Below, in pieces: positions 10,241-31,361 of a stretch of DNA of 64,000 nt. Made by a program: the position numbers and the translations under genes. Source of the stretch: Rhizobium sp. N324 (GTDB lineage: Bacteria > Pseudomonadota > Alphaproteobacteria > Rhizobiales > Rhizobiaceae); contig NZ_CP013630.1 in the NCBI RefSeq assembly GCF_001664485.1, forward strand, positions 2,545,001-2,609,000, read 5' to 3'. Position 1 is the first letter of the stretch; each line of letters opens with the position of its first letter. The notes beneath the pieces were generated by a model. That model saw nothing but the letters and a program-made list of their open reading frames with translations, was not told the DNA's origin and searched no databases.

Positions 10241-10288
10241 CGGCGAACCGCCGCCGCAGGCGCGCTGTCACCCACAGGTGACAGCGGC

Positions 10289-14025: not shown

Positions 14026-14161
14026 CATTTTGTCCTCTTCTCCTGCGAGGAGTAGGCGCTGATGTTTTTCAGCGCAAGCTGAAATTGGCATGCGCGCACC
14101 GGCTGTTTCCCTTGACGCGACAATAGCATATGCCCACATTGAAGAGAGTACGGAGATCCAG

Positions 14162-16392: not shown

Positions 16393-17529
16393 ATGAATTT
16401 CGCAAAACTGCTCGCAGTGTCCGCAGCTGCGATTGCCGGCTTGATGCCGCTTTCGGCCTGGGCGCAGTCCTTCACCGTCAAGGATGTCGCCGGCCGCGAA
16501 GTCAGCTTCGACAAGCCGGTCGAGCGTGTGATCCTTGGGGAAGGCCGCATGCTCTACGCCGTCGCGCCGATCGAGAAGGAAGATCCCTTCGCCAAGATCG
16601 TCGGCTGGCGCAACGATCTCTGGACCACCGATAAGGACGGCTTCAACGCCTATGTCGCGAAGTTTCCCAAAGGCAAGGACCTGCCCTTCCTCGGCAATCT
16701 GACGGATGGCACGCTACAGACCGAGACCGTCGTCAAGCTACATCCCGATGTGCTTTTGCTGCCGATCGGCAACAAGACGGCAGCCGACGAAGTCAAGCTC
16801 AAGGACATGCTCGCCGGTATCGGCGTGAAGATCGTCTATATCGATTTTCGCGAGCATATTCTCGCCAACACCGAGCCGAGCCTGAAGATCCTCGGCCAGC
16901 TCTTTGGCCATGAGGACCGCGCCGAAGCCGTCGCTGCCTACTGGAAAGAGCAGATGGCGCGCGTCACCGACAGGCTGAAGGCCGCCAATCCGCCGAAGCC
17001 GAATGTCTTCATGTACCGCGCCGCCGGCCTGGTGGAATGCTGCGGCACCTTCGGCCCCGATAATTTCGGCCTGATGGTCGATCTGGCCGGCGGCCATAAC
17101 CTCGGCTCCGATTTCCTGCCGGGCTATACCGGTTCGATCAATGCCGAACAGGTCGTCGCCTCCAATCCCGATGTCATCGTCGTCACCGGCTCCAACTGGA
17201 GCCAGACCAAGGATGCCAAGGACTTCGTCAATGTCGGCCCGAATGCGGCCGCGACCTTCACCGACAGCCGCAAGGCGCTGAACACGCTGATGGAAAACCC
17301 GGCTTTCACCGGCTCCAGGGCAGTTGCCGGCGGCAACGTCCATGCGATCTGGCACCAGTTCTATACCAGCCCCTATCAATTCGTCGCCGTGCAGCAGCTC
17401 GCCAAGTGGTTCCACCCGAACCTCTTTGCCGATCTCGATCCGGATGCCACCTTCAAGGAATTCCACGAAAAATTCCTGCCGGTCGCCTATCAGCCGGGTT
17501 ATTGGGTCGATGCCAAGGCGAGCCAGTAG
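16393..17529 (+). CDS. Iron-complex-type ABC importer, periplasmic binding protein
   Basis: A 378-residue FecB/BtuF-type (PF01497-like) binding protein. The signal peptide ends at about residue 25 (LSAWAQ/SF). The opening FTVKDVAGREVSFDKPVERV is typical of siderophore, haem or cobalamin binders, and LHPDVLLLPIG with NPDVIVVTGS are the paired lobes. Longer than most, with an insertion around DGFNAYVAKFPKGKD. First gene of a three-gene operon; an RirA-like box upstream points to iron, but no ligand can be read from sequence. Confidence 0.9.
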   Translation: MNFAKLLAVSAAAIAGLMPLSAWAQSFTVKDVAGREVSFDKPVERVILGEGRMLYAVAPIEKEDPFAKIVGWRNDLWTTDKDGFNAYVAKFPKGKDLPFLGNLTDGTLQTETVVKLHPDVLLLPIGNKTAADEVKLKDMLAGIGVKIVYIDFREHILANTEPSLKILGQLFGHEDRAEAVAAYWKEQMARVTDRLKAANPPKPNVFMYRAAGLVECCGTFGPDNFGLMVDLAGGHNLGSDFLPGYTGSINAEQVVASNPDVIVVTGSNWSQTKDAKDFVNVGPNAAATFTDSRKALNTLMENPAFTGSRAVAGGNVHAIWHQFYTSPYQFVAVQQLAKWFHPNLFADLDPDATFKEFHEKFLPVAYQPGYWVDAKASQ

Positions 17530-17535
17530 TCCGAA

Positions 17536-18606
17536 ATGGCCGAGATCGCCGCCATATCGGTTGAAGGAGAAGCTGGGAGGGAGCGCTACCGCGCCCTCAC
17601 CCGGCGCAAGCTTTTGATCCTAGCCGCCATGACGGCGGCGCTCTGCCTGTCCTTCTCAGTCGATCTCGCCTGGGGACCGGCCCGCTACAGCCTCAGTGAG
17701 GTCGTCGCCGCCCTCCTCGACCCCTCCTCCGTTTCCGATCAGGTGCGGGCCGTCGTCTGGAATATCCGCATGCCGGTCGCCGTGATGGCGATCGTCGTCG
17801 GTGCCTCGCTCTCCGTCGCCGGTGCGCAGATGCAGACGATCCTCGCCAATCCGCTGGCCAGCCCCTTCACGCTCGGCATCTCGGCGGCGGCAAGCTTCGG
17901 CGCGGCTCTGGCGATCGTCACCAGCGTTCCGCTGCTGCCGGTCGCCGCCGGCCTGCTCGTGCCGGTCAATGCCTTCATCATGGCGCTGATTGCGACACTT
18001 TTCATCCATTTCGTCTCGCAGGCCCGCGGCGTCTCGGTGCAAACAGTGGTGCTGCTCGGCATCGCCCTGGTTTTCACCTTCAACGCGGCCCTCGCCTTCC
18101 TGCAATATCTCGCCTCCGAACAGGCGCTGTCGGCAGTCGTCTTCTGGACGATGGGCAGCCTCACAAAAGCCACCTGGCCGAAGATCTGGGTGACGCTCGC
18201 CGTTCTGCTGATTGCCCTTCCGCTCTTCGCCCGCAATGCCTGGGCGCTGACCGCCATCCGCCTCGGCGAGGACAAGGCCGCGAGCTTCGGCGTCAATGTC
18301 CGCCGCATTCGGCTGGAAACCATGCTTGTCGTCTCGCTGCTGGCCGCAGTCCCCGTCAGCTTCGTCGGCACCATCGGTTTCGTCGGCCTCGTTGGCCCCC
18401 ATATCGCCCGCATGATTCTCGGCGAGGATCAGCGCTTCTTCCTGCCGGGCTCGATTCTGTCAGGCGCGCTGCTGCTGTCGCTGACCTCGATCGTCTCGAA
18501 GTCGATCATCCCCGGCGTCGTCTTCCCGATCGGCATCATCACCGCGCTGGTCGGCGTGCCCTTCTTCTTCTCGCTCATCCTCTCGAACAGGAGCCGGTCA
18601 TGGTAG
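17536..18606 (+). CDS. Iron-complex-type ABC importer, FecCD permease
   Basis: A 356-residue membrane protein with about nine to ten helices. WNIRMPVAVMAIVVGASLSVAGAQMQTILANPLASP is the FecCD hallmark (R-x-P-R/A ... NPLA..P), and GFVGLVGPHIARMILG near the C-terminus is the ATPase-contact region. It begins 6 bases after the binding-protein stop and overlaps the ATPase gene by 7 bases. A single permease would act as a homodimer. Confidence 0.93.
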   Translation: MAEIAAISVEGEAGRERYRALTRRKLLILAAMTAALCLSFSVDLAWGPARYSLSEVVAALLDPSSVSDQVRAVVWNIRMPVAVMAIVVGASLSVAGAQMQTILANPLASPFTLGISAAASFGAALAIVTSVPLLPVAAGLLVPVNAFIMALIATLFIHFVSQARGVSVQTVVLLGIALVFTFNAALAFLQYLASEQALSAVVFWTMGSLTKATWPKIWVTLAVLLIALPLFARNAWALTAIRLGEDKAASFGVNVRRIRLETMLVVSLLAAVPVSFVGTIGFVGLVGPHIARMILGEDQRFFLPGSILSGALLLSLTSIVSKSIIPGVVFPIGIITALVGVPFFFSLILSNRSRSW

Positions 18607-19352
18607 CGCTTCAGTTGCAATCGGTCGGCGCCTATCACGGCCGCAAGCTCTTCGTCGAAGATGTGACGACGCCGGTGATGAAATCGGGCGAGATCGTCGC
18701 TGTCATCGGCCCGAACGCCGCCGGCAAGTCGACGCTGTTCAAACGCATCACCGGCCTGCTCAAGGGTCCGGGCGATGTTGTCGTCGAAGGCTCGAAGGCG
18801 AAGAACGCCATCAGCTACATGCCGCAGGATACCTCCGCCAATGCGGTGCTGACCGTCTACGAATCCATTCTCCTCGCCCGCAAGCAGGGCCAGTCCTGGG
18901 CCGTCGGCGACAATGACCTGCACTTCATCGACGAGATCATGGCGGCGCTCGATATCGCAGCACTCGCCTTCCGCGATCTCGGGGCGCTGTCCGGAGGCCA
19001 GCGCCAGCTCGTCTCGATCGCCCAGGCGCTCGTCCGCGAACCGGAAATCATGCTGATGGACGAACCCACCAGCGCCCTCGACCTCCACCGCCAGGTCGAA
19101 GTCCTCGACTTCATGCGCCGCCGCGCCCGTGCCAAAGGCATGATCGTCCTCGTCGCCATCCACGACCTCAACCAGGCGCTGCGCTTCGCCGACAAAGTCC
19201 TCCTCATCGCCAACGGCCGCATGCGCGCCTGCGGCACCCCCAGGGACGTCGTCACCGCCGAAATGCTGCGGGAGATTTATAGGGTCGAAGCCCGCGTGGA
19301 GAAATGCTCGCTGGACCATGATCATGTGATCGTGGATGGGACGGCGCATTGA
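18600..19352 (+). CDS. Iron-complex-type ABC importer, ATPase
   Basis: A 250-residue ABC ATPase of the FecE/BtuD kind. Walker A GPNAAGKSTL (about residues 38-47), signature LSGGQRQLV, Walker B IMLMDEPTSALD and switch His in VAIHDLNQ are all present. It overlaps the permease stop by 7 bases, indicating translational coupling. It ends 22 bases before the convergent stop of the SorC-type regulator. Confidence 0.94.
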   Translation: MVALQLQSVGAYHGRKLFVEDVTTPVMKSGEIVAVIGPNAAGKSTLFKRITGLLKGPGDVVVEGSKAKNAISYMPQDTSANAVLTVYESILLARKQGQSWAVGDNDLHFIDEIMAALDIAALAFRDLGALSGGQRQLVSIAQALVREPEIMLMDEPTSALDLHRQVEVLDFMRRRARAKGMIVLVAIHDLNQALRFADKVLLIANGRMRACGTPRDVVTAEMLREIYRVEARVEKCSLDHDHVIVDGTAH

Positions 19353-19374: not shown

Positions 19375-20325
19375 TCAATCGATCAATCGCTGCGCCGTAA
19401 ACTTGTCCGTAACAAGCATGTCGATGACCCCGACGCGCAGCGCCCCTGCAATAGCGTCAGTCTTTTTGGCTCCGCCGGCGAGCGCAATGACCCGGTCCAC
19501 GCGCTCCAAATCCTCGAGCGGCAGCCCGATGACCCGGTCATCCAGGGGCGTCTTGACCGGCTTGCCGTTTTTATCGAAGAAGCGAAGCGAAATATCGCCG
19601 ACGGCGCCCGCTTCCGCGAGATCGGAGAGTTCGCGAGACGAAAAGATGTTGCCGGAGCGTGCGAGAAGTTCGGAGGGTTCGACAGCTCCTATACCGACGA
19701 TCGCAAGCGTTATGCTGCCGAATAGATCCATCGTCTCGCGGACGAACGGGTCGGCCTGCATCAGAAGCTTTGCCTCCCTCGACGTCGTCACGCCCTGCAC
19801 GGGGAGCAGTTTCGGCTCGGCGCCGGTCAGCCGTGCAAGCCGCGTGGTCAGCTGTGTAGCGTGCGTCTGCACCGAAGGATCGCCCATGCCGCCAAGGGTC
19901 TGGACGACGTATTTCACCTGAGCGCTCTTCTGCGGATGAATATTCTCGACCATCTTGAAAATGGTCTGGCTCCAGCTCGAAACGCCGATGATCTCCCCCG
20001 GCGCCAGCGTCACCTCCAGGAGATGCGCCGCTGCCTCGCCGATACGGGCCATGATGGCGCCGTCCCGGTCTTCCGTGCACTCCACGACGATCGCCTCCGG
20101 CAGATCGTATTTTTCGCGAAGCGCGCTCTCGAGTTCGCTGTAGGTGCCGACGGGAGGAATGACGCTGGTTCGCACGATATCTTCAGCCTCGGCACGCTTG
20201 AGCATGCGCGACACCGTCGCCTGCGACAGGCGAAGGTGCTGTGCGATCTCCGCCTGCCGCCGACCCTCGATGTGGTACATCTGGGCGACCCTTGAAATGA
20301 GGCGGAGTTCGTTGAGGCGAGTCAT
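19375..20325 (-). CDS. SorC/DeoR-type sugar-binding transcriptional regulator
   Basis: A 316-residue regulator. The N-terminal helix-turn-helix reads YHIEGRRQAEIAQHLRLSQATVSRML (about residues 17-42); the rest is the SorC sugar-phosphate-binding fold (GVSSWSQTIFKMVE, SLRFFDKNGKPV, GGAKKTDAIAGALR). Such proteins respond to phosphorylated sugars. It is the last gene of the leftward operon after the kinase and two transketolase subunits. A perfect GTGAAT-N4-ATTCAC palindrome lies 14 bases upstream of its start, and related sites lie in the divergent promoter, so it very likely controls both operons and itself. Confidence 0.9.
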   Translation of the reverse strand: MTRLNELRLISRVAQMYHIEGRRQAEIAQHLRLSQATVSRMLKRAEAEDIVRTSVIPPVGTYSELESALREKYDLPEAIVVECTEDRDGAIMARIGEAAAHLLEVTLAPGEIIGVSSWSQTIFKMVENIHPQKSAQVKYVVQTLGGMGDPSVQTHATQLTTRLARLTGAEPKLLPVQGVTTSREAKLLMQADPFVRETMDLFGSITLAIVGIGAVEPSELLARSGNIFSSRELSDLAEAGAVGDISLRFFDKNGKPVKTPLDDRVIGLPLEDLERVDRVIALAGGAKKTDAIAGALRVGVIDMLVTDKFTAQRLID

Positions 20326-20338
20326 CGCTAATCCCAGA

Positions 20339-20354
20339 GTGAATTTTTATTCAC
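20339..20354. promoter_or_regulatory. Candidate SorC operator 1 (perfect palindrome)
   Basis: GTGAATTTTTATTCAC, a perfect inverted repeat (GTGAAT/ATTCAC, 4-base spacer) in front of the regulator gene and overlapping the last codons of the kinase gene. It is the best copy of a motif also found at 23656 and 23796. Confidence 0.72.
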
Positions 20355-21813
20355 CTTTAGCCTGTGTTTCGCGGGACGTCGAGCGGGCGAGCGCATCATT
20401 CCAGGTCTGCAGAAGCGCTGCTCGATCGACGGGTTGCGGCTGAATGGTCTGGGTGTTTCGCGGCAAGCCCGCGACCATGTGGAGGTCGCTCCACAAGCCG
20501 AGGGACAACCCCGCCAGATAGGCGGCGCCCAGCGCCGACGCCTCGGGTGCTTCGCATTGGATGACGGGATGTTGGATGAGGTTCGAGACGCACTGCATCA
20601 GGAAGCGGTTCTGGCTCGGTCCGCCATCCACATGGAGCGCGCCGAGTTCGCCGCCGCTTTGCGCCCGCATCGCCGCGATCACGTCATGCACCTGGAAGGC
20701 GATGGAATCGGTGACCGACCGCGCCATTTGCGCCCGTGTCGTGTTGAAGTTGATCTGCGAGAACAGGGCACGGGCGTCGGAATGCCAGTAAGGCGCCCCC
20801 AGTCCGACGAAGGCCGGCACGAAACCGGGTCCGCCAGGCGCAGCGCTCGCAGCGAGTTCGACAAGGGCCGCCACATCTTCAAGGCCGAGAATATCCGCCA
20901 TCCAGGGAAGGCTGGCGGCGCAAACCAGAATATTGCCTTCGAAGGCGAAAGTCGGTTTTCCCCCGATACGCCATGCGACGGTGGTTGTGACCCCGTTGCG
21001 CGGGGCAATGAATTGCGGCAGCGTCGTCATGATAGAAGAGCCGGTTCCGAAGGTCACCTTGCCGTCGCCCGGCTTGAAGGCTCCATGGCCGAACAAGGCT
21101 GCGTGGCTGTCTCCGATCGCGGCCATGATTGGAGTGCCATCCGGCACCCCTGGCAATCCTTGCGTCCTGCCGAAATCGGCGGAACTGTCGAGCACCTCGG
21201 GCAGGAGCGCGATATCGACGCCGAAGATCTCGCCAAGCTCCTCGCTCCATTTCTGTTCCCGCAGATCGAACAGCTGGCTCCTGGCGGCGTTGGAAGCGTC
21301 GCAGACATGCCGGCGTCCGCCCGTCAGGCAGTGGACGAGCCAACTGTCGATCGTTCCCAGCCGCACTGGCCGCTCGGCTGGAATCCGGTCGAGCAGCCAT
21401 CGGAGTTTCGAACCCGGGAACATCGGATCCAATGGCAGGCCGGTCAGCGCCTGCACACGGTCAGCGCGGCCTTCGGCAATCAGACGTTCGCAATCCTGCG
21501 CGGTTCGACGGCACTGCCAGCTGACCACCGGTCCGAGCGGCTCTCCCGTTTCGGCGTCCCAGGCGGTGACGGACTCGCGCTGGTTGGAAATGGCGACCGC
21601 CTCGATGCTTACAGCCGGGCTGGCCTTCAGGCAGGCGTCGATCGCTTCGCAGACCGATGCGTAGAGCCGGCGCGGGTCTTGTTCGACCCAGCCCGGCTTC
21701 GGATAGGAGATGCCGACAGGAGCCGAACCCCTTCCGACGATGTCTCCCTGTTCGGAAACGAGAACTGCTTTCGAATTGGTCGTGCCCTGGTCGATTGCCA
21801 GAATTGCCCGCAT
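20347..21813 (-). CDS. FGGY-family carbohydrate kinase, glycerol-kinase-like
   Basis: A 488-residue sugar or polyol kinase. DQGTTNSKAV is the N-terminal phosphate loop; SYPKPGWVEQDP, SNQRESVTAWD and WQCRRTAQDCE closely follow glycerol kinase; GDSHAALFGHGAFKPG, GTGSSIM and VDGGPSQNRFLMQ complete the fold. A longer start at 21849 is possible, but the ATG at 21813 has GGGAGG at the right distance. Its neighbours (transketolase subunits, SorC regulator, sugar importer, dehydrogenases) suggest it phosphorylates a ketose rather than glycerol; this is inferred from context. Confidence 0.9.
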   Translation of the reverse strand: MRAILAIDQGTTNSKAVLVSEQGDIVGRGSAPVGISYPKPGWVEQDPRRLYASVCEAIDACLKASPAVSIEAVAISNQRESVTAWDAETGEPLGPVVSWQCRRTAQDCERLIAEGRADRVQALTGLPLDPMFPGSKLRWLLDRIPAERPVRLGTIDSWLVHCLTGGRRHVCDASNAARSQLFDLREQKWSEELGEIFGVDIALLPEVLDSSADFGRTQGLPGVPDGTPIMAAIGDSHAALFGHGAFKPGDGKVTFGTGSSIMTTLPQFIAPRNGVTTTVAWRIGGKPTFAFEGNILVCAASLPWMADILGLEDVAALVELAASAAPGGPGFVPAFVGLGAPYWHSDARALFSQINFNTTRAQMARSVTDSIAFQVHDVIAAMRAQSGGELGALHVDGGPSQNRFLMQCVSNLIQHPVIQCEAPEASALGAAYLAGLSLGLWSDLHMVAGLPRNTQTIQPQPVDRAALLQTWNDALARSTSRETQAKGE

Positions 21814-21879
21814 TCCATCCTCCCGGATCAGGTGGCGGCCGGGCGACAAAAACCTCCCGGCCGGTCACGCCATCCCAGT

Positions 21880-22836
21880 TTACTTACGCTTGATCAGCGA
21901 CTGTGCAGCGTCGGCGATTGCCGATGGCGACATCCCGTATTCGTCGAGCAGGAATTCTGCCGAACCTGTGGGGGCATAGACGCCGGGAACGCCGAGACGC
22001 TTCATCGGCACCGGAGCATTGTCGACCACCACTTCGGCGACCGCGGAACCGAGCCCGCCAAAGATCGAATGCTCTTCGGCGGTGACGATCGCTCCGGTTT
22101 CCCTCGCCGCGGCGATGATGGCTTCCTCGTCGATCGGACGAACCGTGGCGAGGTTGAGCACTCTGGCATTGATGCCGCGGCCAGCGAGAATCTCTGCCGC
22201 CTTGACAATCCGATGGGTCAAGGTGCCGTTGGCGATAAGCGTGACGTCGGAACCCTGGCGAAGCAGATTGGCCTTGCCGAGTTCGAACCTATGCCCCTCC
22301 GGAAGCAGATCCGGCACACCGACCCGCGACAGACGCAGGAAACATGGCCCGTTATAGGCCGCGGCCCACTCGACCGCGGCAGCGGTTTCGATGCGGTCAC
22401 AGGGCGCAATGACCGGAAGATTGGGCAGGACCCGCAGCCAGGCGAAATCCTCGATGGAGTGATGCGTCGGACCGAGTTCGCCATATGCCATTCCGGAGGA
22501 AATGCCGACCAGCTTGACGTTGGCATTCGAGTAGGAAATATCAGCCTTGATCTGCTCCAGCGACCGTCCCGTGAGAAACGGCGCAGCGGCGCACACGAAT
22601 GGAAGACGCCCGCCATTGGCAAGGCCCGCTCCAACGCCGACCATGTTCTGCTCGGCAATGCCGACGTTGACGAGGCGCTCTCCAAACTTCGACTTGAAAC
22701 CGCCGAGCTTGGAGGAACCGACGGAGTCGTTGCAGACGGCAACGATCGTTTCGTTTTCAGCTGCCAGCCGCTCGAGCGTGGAGGCAAAGGCGTCGCGGCA
22801 ATCGTGGAGCTTGGGTGGGTTTACTGGCGCGTTCAT
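21880..22836 (-). CDS. Transketolase, C-terminal subunit
   Basis: A 318-residue protein equal to the pyrimidine-binding and C-terminal domains of transketolase. FASTLERLAAENETIVAVCNDS, RLVNVGIAEQNMVGVGAGLA (the conserved Glu of thiamin activation), HHSIEDFAWLRVLP and YEWAA-like segments are typical of the split transketolase/DXS-like family. Its ATG overlaps the stop of the N-terminal subunit by one base (TAATG), so the two are made together. With a dedicated kinase it likely transfers a two-carbon unit from a phosphorylated ketose, as the AptAB pair does with apulose 4-phosphate in D-apiose catabolism. Confidence 0.9.
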   Translation of the reverse strand: MNAPVNPPKLHDCRDAFASTLERLAAENETIVAVCNDSVGSSKLGGFKSKFGERLVNVGIAEQNMVGVGAGLANGGRLPFVCAAAPFLTGRSLEQIKADISYSNANVKLVGISSGMAYGELGPTHHSIEDFAWLRVLPNLPVIAPCDRIETAAAVEWAAAYNGPCFLRLSRVGVPDLLPEGHRFELGKANLLRQGSDVTLIANGTLTHRIVKAAEILAGRGINARVLNLATVRPIDEEAIIAAARETGAIVTAEEHSIFGGLGSAVAEVVVDNAPVPMKRLGVPGVYAPTGSAEFLLDEYGMSPSAIADAAQSLIKRK

Positions 22837-23645
22837 TAGAGTGCCTCCGACAATTCTGCCAATGCGATTTCGTATTGTTCCTTATTGGGCACCTTGTGGT
22901 GCCAGTCGACCCGGTCCTGCATGAACGAAATTCCATGGCCCTTGTTGGTATGGGCAACAATACAATGCGGTCTCGATCCCCGGTGTTCGAGCGCCGGAAC
23001 GATCTCGCTCATATCGTTGCCGTTGATCTCGGTGACGTCCCAATCGAAGGCCTCGAGCTTCGGCCGAAGCGGAGCGAGATCGTTGGTTTCCGAAAGCGCC
23101 GCACCCTGCTGGAACCTGTTGTGGTCGATCACCAGCGTCAAGTTGTCGAGCTTGAACTGCGCGGCCGCCATGATCGCCTCCCAGTTGGAGCCCTCCTGCA
23201 TCTCACCGTCGCCGGTGACGACATAAGTGTGATATCCAGCGCCGGCGAGTTTGGCGGCTTTCGCCATTCCGACGGCGACCGGAAGACCGTGGCCGAGCGG
23301 CCCGGTATTCGTTTCGACGCCGGGAACCTTGTTGCAATTCGGATGCCCGTTCAGCCTCGAATGCGGCTGCAAAAAGGTGGAAATCTCCTCCTCCGGAATG
23401 AAGCCGCGTTTGGCGAGCGTCACATAGAGAGCGCAGGCCGTATGTCCCTTTGAAAGAACGAACCTGTCGCGGTCGGGATGCTTCGGCTGATCCGGCCAGA
23501 CCTTCAGCACACGAAAATAGAGCGCCGTCAAAATGTCGATGACCGACATCTCCCCGCCAATATGGCCGGCGCCCGCTTCGAAGACCGCCTGAAGATCGCG
23601 CAATCGGATCTCGCGGGCGATGCGCTCAAGTTCTGTCCTATCCAT
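22836..23645 (-). CDS. Transketolase, N-terminal (thiamin-diphosphate) subunit
   Basis: A 269-residue protein matching the first domain of transketolase. GAGHIGGEMSVIDILTALYF, LSKGHTACALYVTLA, NTGPLGHGLPVAVGMA and the thiamin-diphosphate motif GDGEMQEGSNWEAIMAA are present in order. The frame is open to 23678, but the ATG at 23645 with GAGGA before it gives the usual N-terminus MDRTELERIA. First gene of the leftward operon; a candidate SorC site lies 11 bases upstream. Split transketolases of this sort occur in sugar-specific catabolic loci. Confidence 0.91.
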   Translation of the reverse strand: MDRTELERIAREIRLRDLQAVFEAGAGHIGGEMSVIDILTALYFRVLKVWPDQPKHPDRDRFVLSKGHTACALYVTLAKRGFIPEEEISTFLQPHSRLNGHPNCNKVPGVETNTGPLGHGLPVAVGMAKAAKLAGAGYHTYVVTGDGEMQEGSNWEAIMAAAQFKLDNLTLVIDHNRFQQGAALSETNDLAPLRPKLEAFDWDVTEINGNDMSEIVPALEHRGSRPHCIVAHTNKGHGISFMQDRVDWHHKVPNKEQYEIALAELSEAL

Positions 23646-23655
23646 GATTCCTCGC

Positions 23656-23671
23656 GTGCATAAATATTCAC
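23656..23671. promoter_or_regulatory. Candidate SorC operator 2
   Basis: GTGCATAAATATTCAC matches GTGAAT-N4-ATTCAC with one mismatch. It lies just upstream of the transketolase N-subunit gene, where binding would block the leftward promoter. Confidence 0.62.
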
Positions 23672-23795
23672 TATCCAATATTTTTGCACAACATACCGAT
23701 TAGTCAAGCCCCTTAAACGAGGCTGCCAGCGTAAGCGCCGCCAGAAATCTTGTTGACAGCTGGAAAGCAAGTTGTTAATGAATTTTCCAGCAGGA

Positions 23796-23811
23796 GTGAA
23801 TAATTATTCTA
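23796..23811. promoter_or_regulatory. Candidate SorC operator 3
   Basis: GTGAATAATTATTCTA matches GTGAAT-N4-ATTCAC except for the last two bases. It lies 46 bases before the permease gene, and 125 bases from operator 2, placing one site near each divergent promoter. Confidence 0.6.
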
Positions 23812-23856
23812 ACCTGAGCGAATATTGAAATACAAGCCTAGGCAGAGGGAGGAGCA

Positions 23857-24837
23857 ATGGTGGCGCTCGATATCAATGAACACGGGCTTTCGTCCGGCGC
23901 CTGGCTGAGCAAGCTCAAGGGAGCGACAGGTCCGCTCGTGGGATTGCTGGCGCTGTGCGTCTTTCTGAGCCTCAGCACGGACACGTTTCTTTCGGTTCGA
24001 AACGGCCTCAACATCCTCGACCAGATCACCGTTCTCGGCATCATGGCTGTTGGAATGACCTTCGTCATCCTGATTGGCGGCATCGATCTCTCCGTCGGCT
24101 CGGCACTCGCCCTGGCCATGATGGTCATGGGCTGGACCGCCAACGTCGCCGGCCTGCCGCTGCCGGTCGGGATCGTCTTTGCGCTGATCGCATCGGCATT
24201 TTCCGGCCTGATCGTCGGACTTCTGGTCACCCAGTTCAGGGTCCCAGCCTTCATCGCCACGCTTGCGATGATGTCTGCGGCGCGCGGCGTCGCCAACATG
24301 ATCACGGACGGCCAGCAGATCGTCGGATTCCCTGACTGGTTCATGATGCTGGCAATCGATCGCCATTTCGGCGTCATGACGGCCACGGTCTTTCTCATGC
24401 TCGCGGTTGTTCTCGCGGCCTGGCTCTTCCTGCACTTCCGCTCCGAGGGACGCATGCTCTATGCGGTGGGCGGAAACGCCGAAGTCGCGCGGCTGGCCGG
24501 CATCAACGTGCCCCTCGTGACGATATCAGTCTATGTCGTGAGTGCCGTCCTTGCGGGGCTTGCGGGCATCGTGCTCGCCGCCCGGCTGGATTCCGTCCAA
24601 CCATCAAGCGGTCTCGGCTACGAGCTGGACACCATTGCCGCTGTCGTCATCGGCGGGACTTCGCTCTCCGGCGGCGCGGGCGGCATCGGCGGAACGCTGA
24701 TCGGCGTCCTGATCATCGGCGTGCTGCGCAACGGGCTCAATCTTCTCAACGTCTCGCCGTTCCTGCAGCAGGTGATCATCGGCATCGTCATCGTGCTCGC
24801 GGTCGGCGCGGAGACCATTCGTCGGCGTCGCGCCTGA
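23857..24837 (+). CDS. Ribose-type sugar ABC importer, permease
   Basis: A 326-residue RbsC-like permease with about eight to ten helices. ILDQITVLGIMAVGMTFVILIGGIDLSVGS is the family hallmark near the N-terminus; GGNAEVARLAGINV and GTSLSGGAGGIGGTLIGVLIIGVLRNGLNLL are C-terminal landmarks. First gene of the rightward operon, ahead of the binding protein and ATPase, an order unlike rbsDACB. Transports a monosaccharide or polyol across the inner membrane. Confidence 0.93.
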   Translation: MVALDINEHGLSSGAWLSKLKGATGPLVGLLALCVFLSLSTDTFLSVRNGLNILDQITVLGIMAVGMTFVILIGGIDLSVGSALALAMMVMGWTANVAGLPLPVGIVFALIASAFSGLIVGLLVTQFRVPAFIATLAMMSAARGVANMITDGQQIVGFPDWFMMLAIDRHFGVMTATVFLMLAVVLAAWLFLHFRSEGRMLYAVGGNAEVARLAGINVPLVTISVYVVSAVLAGLAGIVLAARLDSVQPSSGLGYELDTIAAVVIGGTSLSGGAGGIGGTLIGVLIIGVLRNGLNLLNVSPFLQQVIIGIVIVLAVGAETIRRRRA

Positions 24838-24953
24838 CGAGCAGGGTCCGCCGCGTTGGCGGGCCCAAAATTCCGCCCCGAAATTGGGGGCGGATCAGTG
24901 CCCCGAGGGGGAGGACATACCCGAGGGTTCCATCAAACAACGGAGGAAATACA

Positions 24954-25883
24954 ATGAAAATAGCGCGCACCATGCTCGCATCTGCTGCACTGCTCGGTCT
25001 CATGCTCGGCCCCGTGCACGCGGCGGAACTGAAGAAGCTCGGCCTCGCCGTTGCCAATCTTCAGGCAAACTTCTTCAACCAGATCAAGCAATCGGTCGAG
25101 GCCGAAGCCAAGAAGCGCGGCATCGAAGTCATCACGGTCGACGCAAAGGGCGACGGACCGACGCAGGTCAACCAGATCCAGGATCTTCTGACCCAGAAAA
25201 TCGACGCGCTGATCTACATTCCGGCAGGTGCAGCGGCCGCGACCGTTCCGGTCAAGCTGGCCAAGAGCGCCGGCATCCCGGTCGTTAACGTCGACCGCAA
25301 CGCCGAGGGTGCACCGGGCGATACCTTCCTCGCAACGGATTCCGTCGCCTCAGCCAAGGCGGTGTGCGACTACATTCTGAAGGAAGCCGGCGGCAAGGGG
25401 AAGATGGTCATCATCCACGGCCAGAAGGGCACGACGCCGGAAGTCGATCGCTCGAAGGGCTGCGCTGAATCCCTCAAGGCCTATCCTGACGTGAAGGTTG
25501 TCGCCGAGCAGTTCTCGAACATCTGGAGCCAGGACGAAGGCTTCCAGATCATGCAGAACATGCTGCAGGCAAACCCGGACGTTTCGATCGTTTTCGCACA
25601 GGCCGACGGTCTCGCCCTTGGCGCTGCCCAGGCGATCAAGGTCGCCAATCCGTCGCAGAAGATCGTGGTTGGCGGTTTCGATGGCGACACCGCGGCTCTC
25701 GAAGCCCTCAGCAAGGGTGTCTTCAACGTAACGGCGACACAGCAGACGCAGAAGATGGGTCGCGATGCGGTTGAAAACGCAGCCAAGCTTGTCGCCGGAG
25801 AAAAGGTACCCCCGGTCCAGCTGATGGATGCGACGCTGACGACCAAGGAAAACGTCGCAGGCTTCATCGCCAACCATCCCTAA
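24954..25883 (+). CDS. Ribose-type sugar ABC importer, periplasmic binding protein
   Basis: A 309-residue RbsB-like binding protein. The signal peptide (MKIARTMLASAALLGLMLG, cleavage after VHAA) is followed by LGLAVANLQANFFNQIKQ, the usual first strand and hinge, then IYIPAGAAAATVPVKLA and GGFDGDTAALEAL. Periplasmic-binding-protein-like domain 4 family. Ligand not readable. The ATG follows GGAGGAAA at 24941. The 116-base gap before it holds GC-rich inverted stretches that may balance binding-protein expression. Confidence 0.93.
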   Translation: MKIARTMLASAALLGLMLGPVHAAELKKLGLAVANLQANFFNQIKQSVEAEAKKRGIEVITVDAKGDGPTQVNQIQDLLTQKIDALIYIPAGAAAATVPVKLAKSAGIPVVNVDRNAEGAPGDTFLATDSVASAKAVCDYILKEAGGKGKMVIIHGQKGTTPEVDRSKGCAESLKAYPDVKVVAEQFSNIWSQDEGFQIMQNMLQANPDVSIVFAQADGLALGAAQAIKVANPSQKIVVGGFDGDTAALEALSKGVFNVTATQQTQKMGRDAVENAAKLVAGEKVPPVQLMDATLTTKENVAGFIANHP

Positions 25884-25995
25884 AGCATGTCGCGCAAAAG
25901 TGTGCCGCGGTTTTGCGGCAACGACATGCGTAAAAACAAAGAGCTAAAGCGCGTCGCATGAATCAAGTTTGACGCGACGCGCTTTAGCGCATCGC
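25884..25995. repeat. Rhizobial mosaic palindromes between binding protein and ATPase
   Basis: Two stems: GCATGTCG (25885-25892) with CGACATGC (25922-25929), and CTAAAGCGCGTCG (25944-25956) with CGACGCGCTTTAG (25975-25987). A common intergenic mosaic in Rhizobium. Its place inside an operon may damp expression of the downstream ATPase relative to the binding protein. Confidence 0.78.
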
Positions 25996-26118
25996 GCCGA
26001 AAGTCGGGAAGGATTTTCGGAAAGCACGATGCGAGGATTGAAAGTGTTAGAGCGTCCTTTGTCCGTCCGAAAGGACGCACGGCGCTCCAATGAAGTCGAG
26101 GTCTTGAGGAGGTGTGCC

Positions 26119-27597
26119 ATGACTGACCCGGTTCTTTCCCTGAAGGGCATATCCAAGTGGTATGGGCCGCTCCAGGTTCTGAAGAATGTCAGCCTGGACG
26201 TCTATCCGGGCGAAGTGGTTGCTCTGCTCGGTGAAAACGGAGCGGGCAAGTCGACCCTGTCGGGCATCATCGCCGGGTCACGCACACCGTCCGAAGGATC
26301 GATGACATGGCTGGGGCAGCCTTATGCCCCGGCCACCCCCCGGGAAGCGATCGACAAGGGCGTTGTGCTGATCCATCAGGAACTGCAGCTTCTGCCGCAG
26401 CTGTCGATCGCGGAAAACGTCTTCATCGGACGCTGGCCGATGAAGAACGGCGTCGTCGACCGTGCCCAGATGGTTCGCCGGGCGCAGGACCAGCTCGCGC
26501 GTTTGAACCTTCACATACCCGCCACGCGGACGGTCGCCGGCCTTTCCACCGCAAATCAACAACTGATCGAGATCGCCAAGGCGCTGGCTCTCAACGCCAA
26601 GCTGCTGATCCTCGATGAACCGACAGCCGCCCTCGGCGGCGCGGAGACCGAAGCGCTGTTCGAACAGGTTCGTAAGCTCCGGTCGGAGGGTGTCGGCATC
26701 GTTTACATTTCCCACCGTATGGAAGAGATCAAGCAGATAACCGACCGGATCGTCGTTCTTCGCGACGGGGAGCGGGTGCAGGAATTCTCAGACAGCGCCA
26801 CCCCGGTGCGAACGATTGTCGAGAGCATGGTCGGGCGCCCGCTTGACCGCCTGTTCCCGACTCTGCCGGTGCCGACAGACCGTCCGGTCCTTGAGGTGTC
26901 CGGGCTGAGTTCGCCGGATAATTCGTTCCGCGACGTGACCTTCGAGGTGCGGGCCGGAGAAATTCTGGGCATTGCCGGATTGGTCGGCGCCGGCCGCACC
27001 GAACTGGTGCGGGCGATTTCGGGCGCCGATCCGATCAGTGCAGGTTCGATCAAGCTGGAAGGCGAGGAACTCAGGCTGCGCGATCCGGCGGACGCGATCG
27101 CCAAGGGCATCGTGATGGTTCCGGAAGACCGCAAGGAGCAGGGTCTGATCGTCGGGCACCGGATCAGCGAAAACGTCATCTACGCCAATTTGGACAAACT
27201 CGGCGGTGGCTGGATTACGCCGCGGGTCAAGCGCTCGTTTGCGGAAAAGGCAGTTGCCAAGTTCGGCGTCAAGGGCCGTGCCGAGCAATATGCCTCGGAC
27301 CTTTCCGGCGGCAACCAGCAGAAAGTCGTCATCGCCAAGTGGCTGATGCGCGATCCCAAGGTCGTCGTGCTGGACGAACCGACGAGAGGCATCGACGTCG
27401 GCGCCCGCGCCGGCATCTACGATATCATCGTCAATCTCGCCAAACAGGGCGTCGCGGTCATCGTCGTAAGCTCGGACCTCGAGGAAGTTCTCGGGGTCTC
27501 CAATCGCATCCTCGTGCTTGCGCAAGGCAAGCAGGCGGGCATCCTCAATCGTGACCAGGCAAATGACGTTTCGGTCATGGAGCTGGCCACCATCTAA
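26119..27597 (+). CDS. Ribose-type sugar ABC importer, double-domain ATPase
   Basis: A 492-residue RbsA/MglA-like protein with two ABC domains. Domain 1: Walker A GENGAGKSTL, signature-like LSTANQQLIEIAKAL, Walker B LLILDEPTAALGG. Domain 2 begins VLEVSGLSSPDN with degenerate Walker A GLVGAGRTEL, signature LSGGNQQKVVIAKWL and Walker B VVVLDEPTRGID, the usual arrangement where one site is weak. The frame is open to 25969, but the ATG at 26119 follows AGGAGG and starts at the conserved MTDPVLSLKGISKWYG. Confidence 0.95.
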   Translation: MTDPVLSLKGISKWYGPLQVLKNVSLDVYPGEVVALLGENGAGKSTLSGIIAGSRTPSEGSMTWLGQPYAPATPREAIDKGVVLIHQELQLLPQLSIAENVFIGRWPMKNGVVDRAQMVRRAQDQLARLNLHIPATRTVAGLSTANQQLIEIAKALALNAKLLILDEPTAALGGAETEALFEQVRKLRSEGVGIVYISHRMEEIKQITDRIVVLRDGERVQEFSDSATPVRTIVESMVGRPLDRLFPTLPVPTDRPVLEVSGLSSPDNSFRDVTFEVRAGEILGIAGLVGAGRTELVRAISGADPISAGSIKLEGEELRLRDPADAIAKGIVMVPEDRKEQGLIVGHRISENVIYANLDKLGGGWITPRVKRSFAEKAVAKFGVKGRAEQYASDLSGGNQQKVVIAKWLMRDPKVVVLDEPTRGIDVGARAGIYDIIVNLAKQGVAVIVVSSDLEEVLGVSNRILVLAQGKQAGILNRDQANDVSVMELATI

Positions 27598-27619
27598 ACA
27601 GACAAAGAAAGGAAGAGCG

Positions 27620-28408
27620 GTGCCCGACATCACTCTGAACGCCCCGAAGCTTTTCGATCTCAGCGGCCAGGTTGCCATCGTGACCGGCGCCGGGAGCGGC
27701 ATTGGGCAGCGCATTGCCATCGGCCTTGCGCAATGCGGCGCCGACGTGGCGCTGCTCGACCGTCGAACCGACGACGGACTGGCCAATACGGCTGAACATA
27801 TTCGCGCCGCCGGCCGCCGCGCGATCGAGATCGCGGCTGACGTCACGAGCAAGTCTTCCCTCGGAGAAGCAGTCGCACGGACCGAAGCCGATCTCGGCGC
27901 CTTGACCCTTGCCGTCAACGCCGCAGGCATCGCCAACGCGAACGCCGCCGAAGAGATGGAAGAGGATCAATACCAGACGTTGATGGATATCAACCTGAAG
28001 GGCATCTTTCTTTCCTGCCAGGCCGAGGCCCGCGCCATGCTGAAGAATGGACGCGGCTCCATCGTCAACATCGCTTCCATGTCCGGCGTGATCGTCAACC
28101 GGGGCCTGAGCCAGGCGCATTACAACGCCTCCAAGGCGGGCGTCATCCATATGTCGAAGTCTATGGCGATGGAATGGGTCGGCCGCGGCATTCGCGTCAA
28201 CACCATCTCCCCCGGCTACACGGCAACGCCGATGAACACCCGTCCGGAGATGGTTCATCAGACCAAGCTTTTCGAGGAGCAGACGCCGATGCAGCGCATG
28301 GCAGCGGTCGACGAGATGGTCGGTCCGGCGGTGTTCCTGCTGTCGAATGCGGCAAGTTTCGTCACCGGCGTCGATCTTCTCGTCGACGGTGGTTTCTGCT
28401 GCTGGTGA
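27620..28408 (+). CDS. Short-chain dehydrogenase/reductase
   Basis: A 262-residue classical SDR. TGAGSGIGQ is the nucleotide-binding loop, NAAG follows, catalytic Ser in IASMSG and YNASKAG gives the Tyr-Lys pair; VNTISPGYTATPM fits polyol or ketose dehydrogenases. The start is a GTG at 27620 with AAAGGAAGAG in front; the frame upstream overlaps the ATPase gene and is not SDR-like. Its TGA overlaps the ATG of the tpi remnant (TGATG). Predicted to oxidise the imported polyol or sugar to a ketose; inferred from the operon. Confidence 0.9.
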   Translation: MPDITLNAPKLFDLSGQVAIVTGAGSGIGQRIAIGLAQCGADVALLDRRTDDGLANTAEHIRAAGRRAIEIAADVTSKSSLGEAVARTEADLGALTLAVNAAGIANANAAEEMEEDQYQTLMDINLKGIFLSCQAEARAMLKNGRGSIVNIASMSGVIVNRGLSQAHYNASKAGVIHMSKSMAMEWVGRGIRVNTISPGYTATPMNTRPEMVHQTKLFEEQTPMQRMAAVDEMVGPAVFLLSNAASFVTGVDLLVDGGFCCW

Positions 28409-28602
28409 TGCGGATTACAAAGCTCGTTGCCGGCAACTGGAACATGAACCGATCTCGCTTCCTCCCTGGCTGAGATCGAGGCGCTGAAGGGACCAACGGG
28501 CACGACGGCGCGATATCGCCGCCTGCCCGCCCTTCCCGCCGATAGAACGAGCTGAGGCCGACGCCGTCACTGGCGCTCAAGACCGCGCGAATCCGTTGAG
28601 CG
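28408..28602 (+). pseudogene. Remnant of a triose-phosphate isomerase gene (tpiA-like)
   Basis: Starting at the ATG that overlaps the preceding stop, codons read MRITKLVAGNWNMN, closely matching the TpiA N-terminus. After one base of frameshift (near 28450-28465) the sequence LAEIEALKG appears, and after another shift (from 28512) DIAACPPFPPIERAEAD and GAQDRANP, matching the CPP and GAQD segments of TpiA in the right order and spacing. About the first 65 of some 250 codons remain, then the next SDR gene begins. The TGATG junction implies the intact gene was once coupled to the dehydrogenase. Confidence 0.75.
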
Positions 28603-28640
28603 GATTTGCGGCCCTCGACGGATACCCGAAAGGAAAGAGC

Positions 28641-29423
28641 ATGAAACGCTTTGAGCAAAAGACTGTCGTCATTACCGGAGGCAGCCGCGGCATCGGCGCT
28701 GCCATCGCCAGGCGTTTTGCCCGCGAAGGCGCCAATCTCGTCGTTTCGGCCAACGAGGATCTGGTCCACGGCGTTGCCGAGCAGATCCGGGCCGAAGGCG
28801 GCAAGGCGATCTCCTTCATCGGCGACGTGACCGACAAAACAAGCGTCATCGCCCTCTACGATGCGGCCGAGACGGAATTCGGCTCTGTCGACGTCTCGAT
28901 CCAGAATGCCGGCGTCATCACCATCGCCCGCGTCGAGGACCTCACCGAGAACGAGTGGGACAAGGTCATGGCCGTCAACACCAAGGGCGTCTTCCTCTGC
29001 GCCCAGGAGGCGATATCGCGCATGCGCAAACACAAGCGGGGCGGCCGCATCATCAACACCGCCTCTGGCCAGGCCCGCGACGGCTTCATTTTCACGCCGC
29101 ACTACGCCGCCTCGAAAATGGGCGTGGTCGGCGTCACCCAGAGCCTGGCCAAGGAAGTCGCGACCGAAAACATCACCGTAAACGCCTTCTGCCCCGGCAT
29201 CATCGAGACCGACATGTGGGCCTATAACGACGAGGCCTGGGGCAAGCTGCTGGGCAACTACGCCCCCGGCGAACTGATGAAGGAATGGGTCGAAGGCATC
29301 CCGATGAAACGCGCCGGCTCCGGCGAGGACGTTGCCGGCCTGGTCACCTTCCTCGCCAGCGACGACGCCGCCTACATCACCGGCCAGACGATCAATGTCG
29401 ATGGCGGGTTGATTATGTCGTAG
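28641..29423 (+). CDS. Short-chain dehydrogenase/reductase
   Basis: A 260-residue classical SDR. Nucleotide loop TGGSRGIGA, NAG in QNAGVITIA, catalytic Ser in NTASGQARDG and YAASKMG for Tyr-Lys, then NAFCPGIIETDMW. It differs clearly from the other SDR in the operon, so the two probably act on different substrates or positions. The ATG at 28641 follows AAAGGAAAGAG. Last gene of the rightward sugar operon, followed by a repeat cluster. Confidence 0.9.
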   Translation: MKRFEQKTVVITGGSRGIGAAIARRFAREGANLVVSANEDLVHGVAEQIRAEGGKAISFIGDVTDKTSVIALYDAAETEFGSVDVSIQNAGVITIARVEDLTENEWDKVMAVNTKGVFLCAQEAISRMRKHKRGGRIINTASGQARDGFIFTPHYAASKMGVVGVTQSLAKEVATENITVNAFCPGIIETDMWAYNDEAWGKLLGNYAPGELMKEWVEGIPMKRAGSGEDVAGLVTFLASDDAAYITGQTINVDGGLIMS

Positions 29424-29830: not shown

Positions 29831-31361
29831 AGAGCTTGTGAAGCTTTTGAATCCGGCGCGTTTTTGGCCGATCTTGGCTGGCCGATGCAGTCGAGCGTCA
29901 GGCGATTGCGCGCTGCGTTCGGATGGTCGCGTGTTGGTGTCTGGGTGGTGACAGTGGCTCAGCCCTTGGCAAGCCGATGGCCTTGCAAGATATTGTTGGT
30001 GAGTGCGTAGCAGAGCACGACGGCCTGGACCTTTTCGATGCCGCGCACCGTCAATTGTCGCAGATTCCAGTTGCGCCAGCGGGCATGGACGCATTCGCAG
30101 ATCGATCGGGGTTTGTACTGAGCCTTGCCCGCCTCGCTTGCCATGCGGGCCCGCCAGGCCGACACACCCGGACCGTCGCCGCGGCGCGGCAAGAAGGGAT
30201 CGGTTCCGTGCTTGGACTGAGTGGGCGGACAAAAGACCTCAACCCCTTCGCCGTGCGCCCACTCGATATCTTCAGCGCTGCCAAAGCCGCCATCGGCGAG
30301 ATAGCGCCGCGGCAGATGGCCGCTTAGCGCGCGCAACCGCTCCAGCATCGGCCGCATGAGGCCGCGATCGGAGCCGGCATTGGTCACCTCGAGCCCGACC
30401 ACGAACTGCTCACCGGCCGTGCTCGCAACCTGCACATTATAACCCGGGCGGAAGCCGCCGTCGGCCATCTTCATCACCCGCGCCTGTGCATCCGTGCTGG
30501 AGGCGCGCGGCTCCTTCGGCTTTTTGCCATTGCCGCGCTTTTCTTCGCGCGCCTGGCGATGGCGCTCGATCTCGTCAAGAGCGACCTGGGCTGCTCTGAG
30601 CCGCTCGCCGCGCTCGCGCGCCGCCCGCTCCCTGGCCGCCTCGATGCGCCGAGTGCTGGCATCCGAACGCGCATCGACCTCGTGCTTGAGCTGATCCACA
30701 ACCGCCTCGGCAATGGAAAGATGCCGATCAAGCGTCGCTTTGCGGCCGAACGAGGCCGCACCCGCGCTTGCCCGGACCCGCACGCCATCCTGCGCCAGAC
30801 AATCGAGAGTGACGAGGCCGGCACCGGCAAGCGCCGCCAGATGCTCGGCAAGCAGCCGGTCGAGCAAATCGGCGCAACCAACCCGAAAATCCGACAGTGT
30901 GTGATAGTTCACCGAGACACCGCCGCACAGCCAGCGATAGACGTCGTGGCTCCCGCACTGCCGTTCCAGCGCCCGCGCGCTGCCGACGCCGTCGCTGCTG
31001 GCATAGAGCCACAGCGCCAGCAAAAGCCGTGGCGAAATCGGTGGATGGCCTGGCCGGTGCTCACGCGCCTTGATCCGATCTTCGAGCGTGCTCAGATCCA
31101 GTCCCTCGACATAGTTCCAAATGACCCGCACCGCATGATCCTGGCCGATCAAGCTGTCGATATCGACGGCACGCAACTCGATCTGATCGCGCACCGGCTC
31201 ACGCATGCGCGCCGCTCCGCGTCCCACCTGAGCACTTCGCCGCGCTCCATGCACCGGCAATCCTTCGAACAGGTCGTCGCCCACCATCATCCCCCAAGCA
31301 AATCAACGACCCAACAGAATCACAATCCAATCGCCTCCGCTACCAAACATTCACAGGCTCT
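29831..31361 (-). mobile_element. IS1182-like insertion sequence, about 1.53 kb, apparently intact
   Basis: The ends carry imperfect inverted repeats: AGAGCTTGTGAA at 29831-29842 and TTCACAGGCTCT at 31350-31361, differing at one position over 12 bases with further matches inward. A single transposase fills most of it. Outside, the left flank (ending GGGGCACCTC) and the right flank (CAGGATGAGG) join to re-create a REP palindrome like that at 31503-31553. The exact ends, and hence a 1- to 3-base duplication (C or CTC), are ambiguous. Confidence 0.82.
29959..31290 (-). CDS. IS1182-family transposase
   Basis: A 443-residue DDE transposase. The N-terminal domain includes LRAVDIDSLIGQDHAVRVIW and SPRLLLALWLYASSDGVGSAR, typical of the IS1182 group; acidic residues appear in LDCLAQDGVRVRAS, YLADGGFGSAEDIE and ECVHARWRNW (Y-(2)-R-(3)-E-(6)-K-like region). 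A Lys/Arg-rich insertion near residues 215-270 separates the catalytic parts. No stop or frameshift, so the element may be active. The leftward gene sits wholly inside the inverted repeats. Confidence 0.9.
   Translation of the reverse strand: MMVGDDLFEGLPVHGARRSAQVGRGAARMREPVRDQIELRAVDIDSLIGQDHAVRVIWNYVEGLDLSTLEDRIKAREHRPGHPPISPRLLLALWLYASSDGVGSARALERQCGSHDVYRWLCGGVSVNYHTLSDFRVGCADLLDRLLAEHLAALAGAGLVTLDCLAQDGVRVRASAGAASFGRKATLDRHLSIAEAVVDQLKHEVDARSDASTRRIEAARERAARERGERLRAAQVALDEIERHRQAREEKRGNGKKPKEPRASSTDAQARVMKMADGGFRPGYNVQVASTAGEQFVVGLEVTNAGSDRGLMRPMLERLRALSGHLPRRYLADGGFGSAEDIEWAHGEGVEVFCPPTQSKHGTDPFLPRRGDGPGVSAWRARMASEAGKAQYKPRSICECVHARWRNWNLRQLTVRGIEKVQAVVLCYALTNNILQGHRLAKG

What the first reader, a model, noticed from the sequence alone, without database searches (positions are those of the whole stretch)
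19375..29423. Divergent catabolic locus: sugar ABC importer, two SDRs, FGGY kinase and a split transketolase under one SorC regulator
The sequence shows an importer, two oxidoreductases, a kinase and a two-subunit transketolase with a SorC regulator. From family knowledge this predicts: uptake, oxidation of a polyol to a ketose, phosphorylation, two-carbon transfer to give a C3-C5 phosphate. The closest described analogue I can name is D-apiose breakdown, where a kinase and the transketolase AptAB act on apulose 4-phosphate; here an isomerase is absent and dehydrogenases take its place, so the starting substrate may be a polyol (possibly branched). Not recognised as a described pathway.
Basis: partly seen in the sequence, partly recalled or inferred. 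Interest (0 to 1): 0.85.

Follow-up and report, generated by a model that had tools for sequence, protein, structure and literature searches.

The report
Rhizobial apiose-type sugar breakdown locus
A nine-gene Rhizobium cluster, whose importer was so far guessed to carry arabinogalactan, looks like a relative of the E. coli cluster for the branched plant sugar apiose, with two dehydrogenases in place of the usual isomerase and a different importer that may prefer the sugar-alcohol form.

Summary
Best explanation: an apulose-type pathway. A branched C5 sugar or polyol becomes apulose (two SDRs), apulose 4-phosphate (kinase), then xylulose 5-phosphate plus dihydroxyacetone phosphate (AptAB-like transketolase).

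The E. coli SE15 cluster has the same enzymes and regulator. Strains with this cluster type grow on D-apiose, and its authors suggested that the two oxidoreductases replace the isomerase ApsI (PMC13001218). Window SDRs match that pair at 65 and 62%, transketolase at 48/41%, SorC at 44%, kinase at 40%. A palindrome found in rhizobia, TGAATA-NN-TATTCA, recurs in the E. coli cluster and in 25 of 26 scanned SorC-bearing clusters. Relatives carry a triosephosphate isomerase gene between the SDRs; the window keeps a remnant.

The importer is not shared. It occurs in 12 of 398 genomes, each time beside the SDR pair, and this genome has a 99% match to R. etli's p42f binding protein, which lies beside apionate-pathway genes. 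Apiitol is therefore a serious candidate substrate. No substrate is proven.

The parts
19375..20325 (-). SorC/DeoR-type sugar-binding transcriptional regulator
   Evidence: PF04198 220.6 bits; 44% to the regulator of the E. coli SE15 D-apiose cluster
20340..20353 (.). operator-like palindrome upstream of sorC, one mismatch to TGAATA-NN-TATTCA
20347..21849 (-). FGGY kinase, inferred apulose kinase; likely start ATG at 21813
   Evidence: PF00370/PF02782; below GlpK cut-offs; 40% to E. coli AplK; own clade and GDSH/GTGSS signature
21880..22836 (-). transketolase C-terminal half (AptB-like)
   Evidence: PF02779/PF02780; 41% to E. coli AptB
22836..23678 (-). transketolase N-terminal half (AptA-like); likely start ATG at 23645
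   Evidence: PF00456; 48% to E. coli AptA; one of the 22 top-tier AptA-like hits in 398 genomes
23657..23670 (.). operator-like palindrome in the divergent region, tkN side
   Evidence: conserved in rhizobia
23753..23781 (+). candidate promoter of the importer-SDR operon: TTGACA, 17-base spacer, TAATGA
   Evidence: TTGACA conserved in 31 divergent rhizobial loci; position; consensus match only
23797..23810 (.). operator-like palindrome just downstream of the candidate promoter
23857..24837 (+). CUT2 ABC importer permease
   Evidence: PF02653
24954..25883 (+). CUT2 periplasmic binding protein
   Evidence: PF13407; ribose-binding-protein fold in the predicted model; ribose-pocket positions partly changed
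26119..27597 (+). CUT2 ATPase
   Evidence: two PF00005 stretches; start checked
27620..28408 (+). SDR1, inferred NAD-linked apiitol dehydrogenase
   Evidence: NF004774 506.4 bits, cut-off 360; 65% to an SDR of the E. coli cluster; NAD-type motif
28419..28583 (+). remnant of a triosephosphate isomerase gene
   Evidence: tblastn of L027/L034 TPI, E about 1e-8; near-full-length in 15 relatives
28641..29423 (+). SDR2, inferred NADPH-linked apiose reductase
   Evidence: 62% to the other SDR of the E. coli cluster; NADP-type motif

Best explanation
A catabolic locus for a branched five-carbon plant sugar or polyol (D-apiose and/or apiitol) that funnels into apulose. (1) The CUT2 importer takes up the substrate. 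(2) SDR2 reduces apiose to apiitol and SDR1 oxidises apiitol to apulose, together replacing an aldose-ketose isomerase. (3) The FGGY kinase makes apulose 4-phosphate. (4) The two-subunit transketolase moves the ketol unit to glyceraldehyde 3-phosphate, giving xylulose 5-phosphate and dihydroxyacetone phosphate. (5) Triosephosphate isomerase, in the operon in relatives and elsewhere in the genome here, recycles dihydroxyacetone phosphate. (6) The SorC protein controls the two operons and itself through TGAATA-NN-TATTCA palindromes. Shown by sequence: families, synteny, homology to the growth-tested type of E. coli cluster, the shared palindrome, the tpi remnant. Inferred: the substrate, the direction and cofactor of each SDR, the chemistry of kinase and transketolase, and that SorC binds the palindrome.
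For: Same enzymes and regulator as the E. coli SE15 cluster with SDRs 65 and 62% identical; growth of strains with that cluster type on D-apiose (PMC13001218). Palindrome found in rhizobia and recurring in 17 of 17 SorC-bearing clusters outside the set it was found in; three of the four one-mismatch places in the whole genome are in this locus. Beside AptA-like transketolase, 15 of 22 genomes have the SDR pair, and of the 7 without it 4 have an isomerase-family gene next to the kinase. Kinase signature GDSH/GTGSS in 30 of 30 cluster kinases and 0 of 13 other kinases. Operon triosephosphate isomerase in relatives. Complementary NAD-type and NADP-type motifs.
Against: The importer is not orthologous to that of the E. 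coli cluster (25-37%). Kinase and transketolase are only 40-48% identical to the E. coli ones. Four of the 19 SDR1-like hits (60-62% identity) lie outside any such cluster, so identity of that order does not fix the function. The genome already holds the p42f binding protein whose R. etli neighbours are apionate-pathway genes, so a second apiose route would be redundant. Published expression shows response to arabinogalactan; apiose was not tested.
Confidence: 0.7

Rival explanations
1. The natural substrate is the polyol apiitol (D and/or L), imported by this CUT2 system, while D-apiose enters by the p42f importer and goes down the oxidative apionate route; SDR1 is then the key entry enzyme. 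This is a sharper form of the best explanation.
For: Window-type binding protein in 12 of 398 genomes, the same 12 that carry this importer in an SDR-pair cluster, and in none of the isomerase clusters seen; L119 carries both importers; Fisher p 0.0007 by genome and 0.026 by genus; p42f binding protein 99% in this genome.
Against: On independent tree pairs the link is 4 to 0 with about one tie, p 0.125, so shared descent or transfer as a block is not excluded. A polyol alone needs one SDR, yet both are kept. E. coli-type clusters use the same SDR pair with the DUF2291-type importer.
Confidence: 0.35
2. The substrate is another sugar or polyol, unbranched or differently branched (a pentitol, a tetritol, hamamelose-like), handled by the same enzyme families.
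For: Nearest solved relatives of SDR1 include galactitol and polyol dehydrogenases; kinase and transketolase families are broad.
Against: Kinase signature and operator are shared with the E. coli apiose cluster and with isomerase-type clusters. The operon triosephosphate isomerase suggests a dihydroxyacetone phosphate product, which a transketolase gives from a tertiary carbinol such as apulose 4-phosphate (chemical inference).
Confidence: 0.18
3. It is an arabinogalactan (or oligosaccharide) uptake and breakdown cluster, as proposed for R. leguminosarum RL2718-RL2725.
For: RL2720-2 up 4- to 25-fold with arabinogalactan (one replicate) and not on arabinose or galactose (passages of PMC3333776).
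Against: No glycosidase among the nine genes; CUT2 importers carry monosaccharides (general knowledge); enzymes match an apiose cluster. A minor component of the polymer preparation could be the inducer (inference).
Confidence: 0.05

Closest known systems
Escherichia D-apiose cluster, E. coli SE15 ECSF_RS02670-02715 (PMC13001218, 2026)
   Same: Two SDRs (65, 62%), FGGY kinase (40%), SorC-type regulator (44%), split transketolase (48, 41%), CUT2-class importer, same palindrome
   Different: Importer not orthologous (25-37%) and without the DUF2291 protein; tpi remnant between the SDRs; different gene order
Isomerase-type D-apiose cluster (Pectobacterium, ApsI; MetaCyc PWY-8089, as cited in PMC13001218; Carter et al. 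2018 recalled, not held)
   Same: Kinase, split transketolase, SorC regulator and palindrome, as seen in L139 and L140
   Different: Isomerase-family gene instead of the SDR pair; DUF2291-type importer
R. etli p42f apionate (oxidative apiose) locus
   Same: CUT2 importer class; lies in the same species group and its binding protein is 99% identical in this genome
   Different: OiaX, four-carbon acid sugar kinase, RpiB and TPI instead of FGGY kinase and transketolase; no SDR pair; window binding protein 32% identical
Glycerol kinase GlpK
   Same: Closest solved family (2dpn, 349.9 bits)
   Different: Below the GlpK cut-offs, separate clade, changed substrate positions

Membership tests
Two-SDR D-apiose cluster (Escherichia type) | SDR pair orthologous to the E. 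coli pair | tested here: met
   65 and 62%; SDR1 and the E. coli SDR both score 506 bits to NF004774 with cut-off 360; each groups with its counterparts
Two-SDR D-apiose cluster (Escherichia type) | AplK-type kinase and AptAB split transketolase | tested here: met
   40, 48 and 41%; kinase clade; top tier of 22 AptA-like hits
Two-SDR D-apiose cluster (Escherichia type) | SorC regulator with shared operator | tested here: met
   44%; palindrome in both clusters; binding itself not tested
Two-SDR D-apiose cluster (Escherichia type) | DUF2291-type D-apiose importer in the cluster | tested here: not met
   permease 34%, binding protein 26%, ATPase 37%; no DUF2291 gene among the nine
Two-SDR D-apiose cluster (Escherichia type) | growth on D-apiose that depends on the cluster | not testable with these tools
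   shown for E. coli strains by growth of carriers only
Isomerase-type D-apiose cluster (PWY-8089) | D-apiose isomerase gene in the cluster | tested here: not met
   no PF01261 or PF02952 protein among the nine genes
Glycerol kinase GlpK | curated GlpK score and glycerol-contact residues | tested here: not met
   431.6 and 421.7 bits against cut-offs 590.35 and 498; Met, Ser, Ser at Tyr135, Gln246, Phe270 (residue numbers recalled)
Arabinogalactan utilisation | glycoside hydrolase in the cluster | tested here: not met
   none among the locus genes; genes elsewhere in the genome not tested

The most novel reading that the evidence does not exclude
The rhizobial importer is an apiitol importer and the locus is an 'apulose funnel': apulose is achiral, so D- and L-apiitol and apiose can all converge on it. 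R. etli would then hold two parallel routes for apiose-derived plant carbon, oxidative on p42f and apulose-based on the chromosome, and SDR2 and SDR1 would give genes to the orphan activities apiose reductase (EC 1.1.1.114, recalled) and apiitol dehydrogenase.
Probability: 0.35. Interest if true: 0.7.

Novelty: new variant of a known kind. Interest (0 to 1): 0.55.

Why it matters
It gives a testable assignment to a conserved rhizobial locus that responds to the alfalfa rhizosphere and whose importer is called a possible arabinogalactan transporter in print (PMC3333776). That label has been carried on by homology to infer solutes in bean nodules (passage of PMC6421345; I did not check that the gene named there is the ortholog of this one). 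It offers a second, distant lineage in which to test whether two dehydrogenases replace the apiose isomerase, an operator with which to define the regulon, and a link between rhizobia and branched plant sugars.

Tried and rejected
Rejected: glycerol kinase function; arabinogalactan import (see rivals); membership in the unit of SDR3 (31598-32365), the IS element (29959-31290) and the iron-type ABC genes (16393-19352), which are absent beside the locus in distant relatives.

Dropped rows: the L064 kinase fell out of the kinase tree because my start choice gave a fragment; L115 and L116 fell out of the transketolase tree because their TkC lay outside the fetched stretch. The label 'no TK beside' rests on loci of only 4-20 kb. 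All trees are 'quick' ones without bootstrap and carry long-branch warnings.
Full report
WHAT IS THERE. The window lies on contig C1 of a 6.97-Mb genome of the R. etli/R. leguminosarum group, judging by its best-matching loci. They form two divergent blocks: sorC, kinase, tkC and tkN on the minus strand; permease, binding protein, ATPase, SDR1 and SDR2 on the plus strand. All nine lie together in 62 of 77 loci retrieved with the kinase, while the genes on both sides change. Between SDR1 and SDR2, 15 of those 77 loci have a near-full-length triosephosphate isomerase (TPI) match, one a 171-residue match, and 19 only short remnants. The window has such a remnant in its 232-base gap. L027 and L034 TPI pass the TIGR00419 cut-off. 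G107 and G325 have the operon copy besides two and one further TPI genes; the window genome has two TPI genes, both elsewhere.

WHAT IT MATCHES. A paper of February 2026 (PMC13001218; section 19 read whole, other passages by term search) describes an Escherichia D-apiose cluster with aplK, aptA, aptB and two putative oxidoreductases that its authors suppose replace the isomerase ApsI. Carriers of the cluster grew on D-apiose and K-12 did not. I fetched the cluster of E. coli SE15, the paper's query strain: two SDRs, permease, ATPase, DUF2291 protein, binding protein, FGGY kinase, SorC-type regulator, TkN, TkC. Identities to the window: SDR1 65%, SDR2 62%, TkN 48%, SorC 44%, TkC 41%, kinase 40%, and only 25-37% for the importer genes. 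The SDR pair is thus the best conserved part.

SURVEY. In an even draw of 398 Pseudomonadota genomes, SDR1 homologs at E 1e-95 or better occur in 19: 15 lie in a kinase-transketolase cluster and 4, at 60-62% identity, do not. AptA-like TkN gives 22 genomes at 404 bits or more, then a drop to 346 (I set the line at that gap). Of the 22, 15 have the SDR pair. Of the 7 without it, G222 and G334 have a gene of one xylose-isomerase-like family next to the kinase (PF01261 tested for G222, the other by resemblance), G199 and G258 a fucose-isomerase-like gene next to the kinase (PF02952 tested for G199), and G377, G178 and G223 show neither within the fetched 20 kb; G178 has a fucose-isomerase-like gene elsewhere on the same contig. 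Outside the draw, L062 and L064 also have the fucose-isomerase-like gene. On the transketolase tree the entry module changes at least four times. Exchange of an isomerase for the SDR pair beside the same kinase and transketolase supports the pair performing a net aldose-to-ketose conversion. One variant, L145 (G249, second-tier TkN), has an SDR2-like gene (70%), an unrelated second SDR, a DUF2291-type importer and no SorC gene.

COENZYME MOTIFS. SDR1 has Asp at the end of the second strand in 20 of 20 cluster rows (L145, whose nearest SDR is only 37% identical, set aside). SDR2 lacks an acidic residue at that place and has Arg or Lys in the glycine motif in 21 of 21 rows. By the usual SDR rule (recalled) these are NAD- and NADP-type, which suits an NADPH-driven reduction followed by an NAD-driven oxidation. 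It is a motif rule, not a measurement, and EC 1.1.1.114 is recalled as an NAD enzyme, which would speak against a simple match with SDR2.

KINASE. The closest solved relatives are glycerol kinases, but the protein is below both GlpK cut-offs, groups with 28 other cluster kinases apart from 12 glycerol-kinase-like ones (L145 is unplaced on a long branch), and has Met, Ser, Ser where E. coli GlpK has Tyr135, Gln246 and Phe270 (alignment; numbering recalled). GDSH and GTGSS are in 30 of 30 cluster kinases, that of E. coli included, and GTGSS in 0 of 13 others.

REGULATION. The divergent intergenic region of rhizobial loci shows two conserved palindromes and a TTGACA box. TGAATA-NN-TATTCA with up to two mismatches hits the window three times, all in this locus (expected 0.49; 2 of 100 shuffles reach three). 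With one mismatch the whole genome has four places, three of them here, and the reversed control none. The E. coli stretch has 7 matches at two mismatches (expected 1.32; 1 of 100 shuffles reaches seven), 6 of them in the two intergenic regions beside its regulator gene. Of 29 cluster loci scanned at one mismatch, 25 have a site. The four without are L060, which has a SorC gene, and L064, L137 and L145, in which none was found: 25 of 26 with SorC, 0 of 3 without. Seventeen of these SorC-bearing loci were not in the alignment from which the motif was read, and all 17 have a site. Fourteen stretches without the cluster have none. That SorC binds here is inferred.

IMPORTER. The window-type binding protein occurs in 12 of 398 genomes, the same 12 that have this importer in an SDR-pair cluster (and the window). 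DUF2291-type importers accompany both isomerase clusters and SDR clusters; L119 has both importer types. They resemble the R. etli p42f binding protein, whose structure is 4ry0 and 5ibq (4ry0's title names RHE_PF00037; that 5ibq holds apiose is recalled). The window genome has that protein at 99%, and in R. etli it lies beside oiaX and sugar-phosphate genes. A different substrate for the window-type importer, apiitol, is therefore plausible. Against E. coli ribose-binding protein the recalled contacts Asn13, Phe164 and Asn190 become Ala38, Trp191 and Ala217 while the others are kept, and these are invariant in six window-type proteins. The importer-SDR association has Fisher p 0.0007 by genome and 0.026 by genus, but 4 to 0 with about one tie, p 0.125, on independent tree pairs.

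PUBLISHED DATA. In R. leguminosarum 3841 the corresponding genes, judged by content and the nearby moaA gene (tags not matched by coordinates), are RL2718-19 and RL2720-2. RL2720-2 rose 4- to 25-fold with arabinogalactan (one replicate) and RL2719 12-fold in alfalfa rhizosphere, without a rise on arabinose or galactose (passages). RL2718 and RL2719 are listed as growth-neutral in an insertion screen (passage), and only cbbT among the transketolases was commonly needed on roots (passage).

CONCLUSION. An apulose-type catabolic locus of the two-SDR kind, with a distinct importer and a decayed tpi gene. Families, synteny, palindrome and remnant are shown; substrate and each reaction are inferred.

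Noticed in passing
window 29959-31290: IS5-type transposase gene (PF01609, PF05598) inserted downstream of SDR2, between the locus and SDR3.
   Followed up: no
window 31598-32365: A third SDR (NF005681, 414.7 bits, cut-off 267) beside the locus in many R. etli/leguminosarum-group loci but not in distant relatives; not part of the unit.
   Followed up: partly
window 14090-15208: moaA-type gene; the R. leguminosarum moaA2 (RL2711) lies near the corresponding locus and its mutant had a relative colonisation index of 0.73 in pea rhizosphere (passage of PMC3333776).
   Followed up: no
L123, L124, L125, L126 (about 9620-10420 in each): SDR1 homologs of 60-62% identity outside any kinase-transketolase cluster; in L123 and L126 neighbouring ORFs look like ABC transporter and monooxygenase genes. 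Another use of the same SDR family.
   Followed up: partly
L121 8114-9397: Between the two SDRs of G039 lies a 427-residue protein that looks like a membrane permease (by eye, no profile run), perhaps a third kind of importer for the same pathway.
   Followed up: no
L145 8553-18817: Variant cluster with an SDR2-like gene (70%), an unrelated SDR, DUF2291-type importer, kinase, more distant split transketolase and a DeoR-like regulator (by eye).
   Followed up: partly
L062 424-1890, L064 6771-8237, L130 9315-10733: Fucose-isomerase-like proteins (PF02952) near the same kinase and split transketolase: possibly a second, unrelated kind of apiose isomerase.
   Followed up: partly
L068: A contig titled Mycobacterium sp. 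KBS0706 carries the full cluster in the same order and at almost the same identities as Inquilinus limosus L067; mislabelled or contaminated record, or transfer.
   Followed up: no
G000:C1:3835001-3835014: The only other one-mismatch match to the palindrome in the genome (TGAATAGCTTTTCA); context not read.
   Followed up: no
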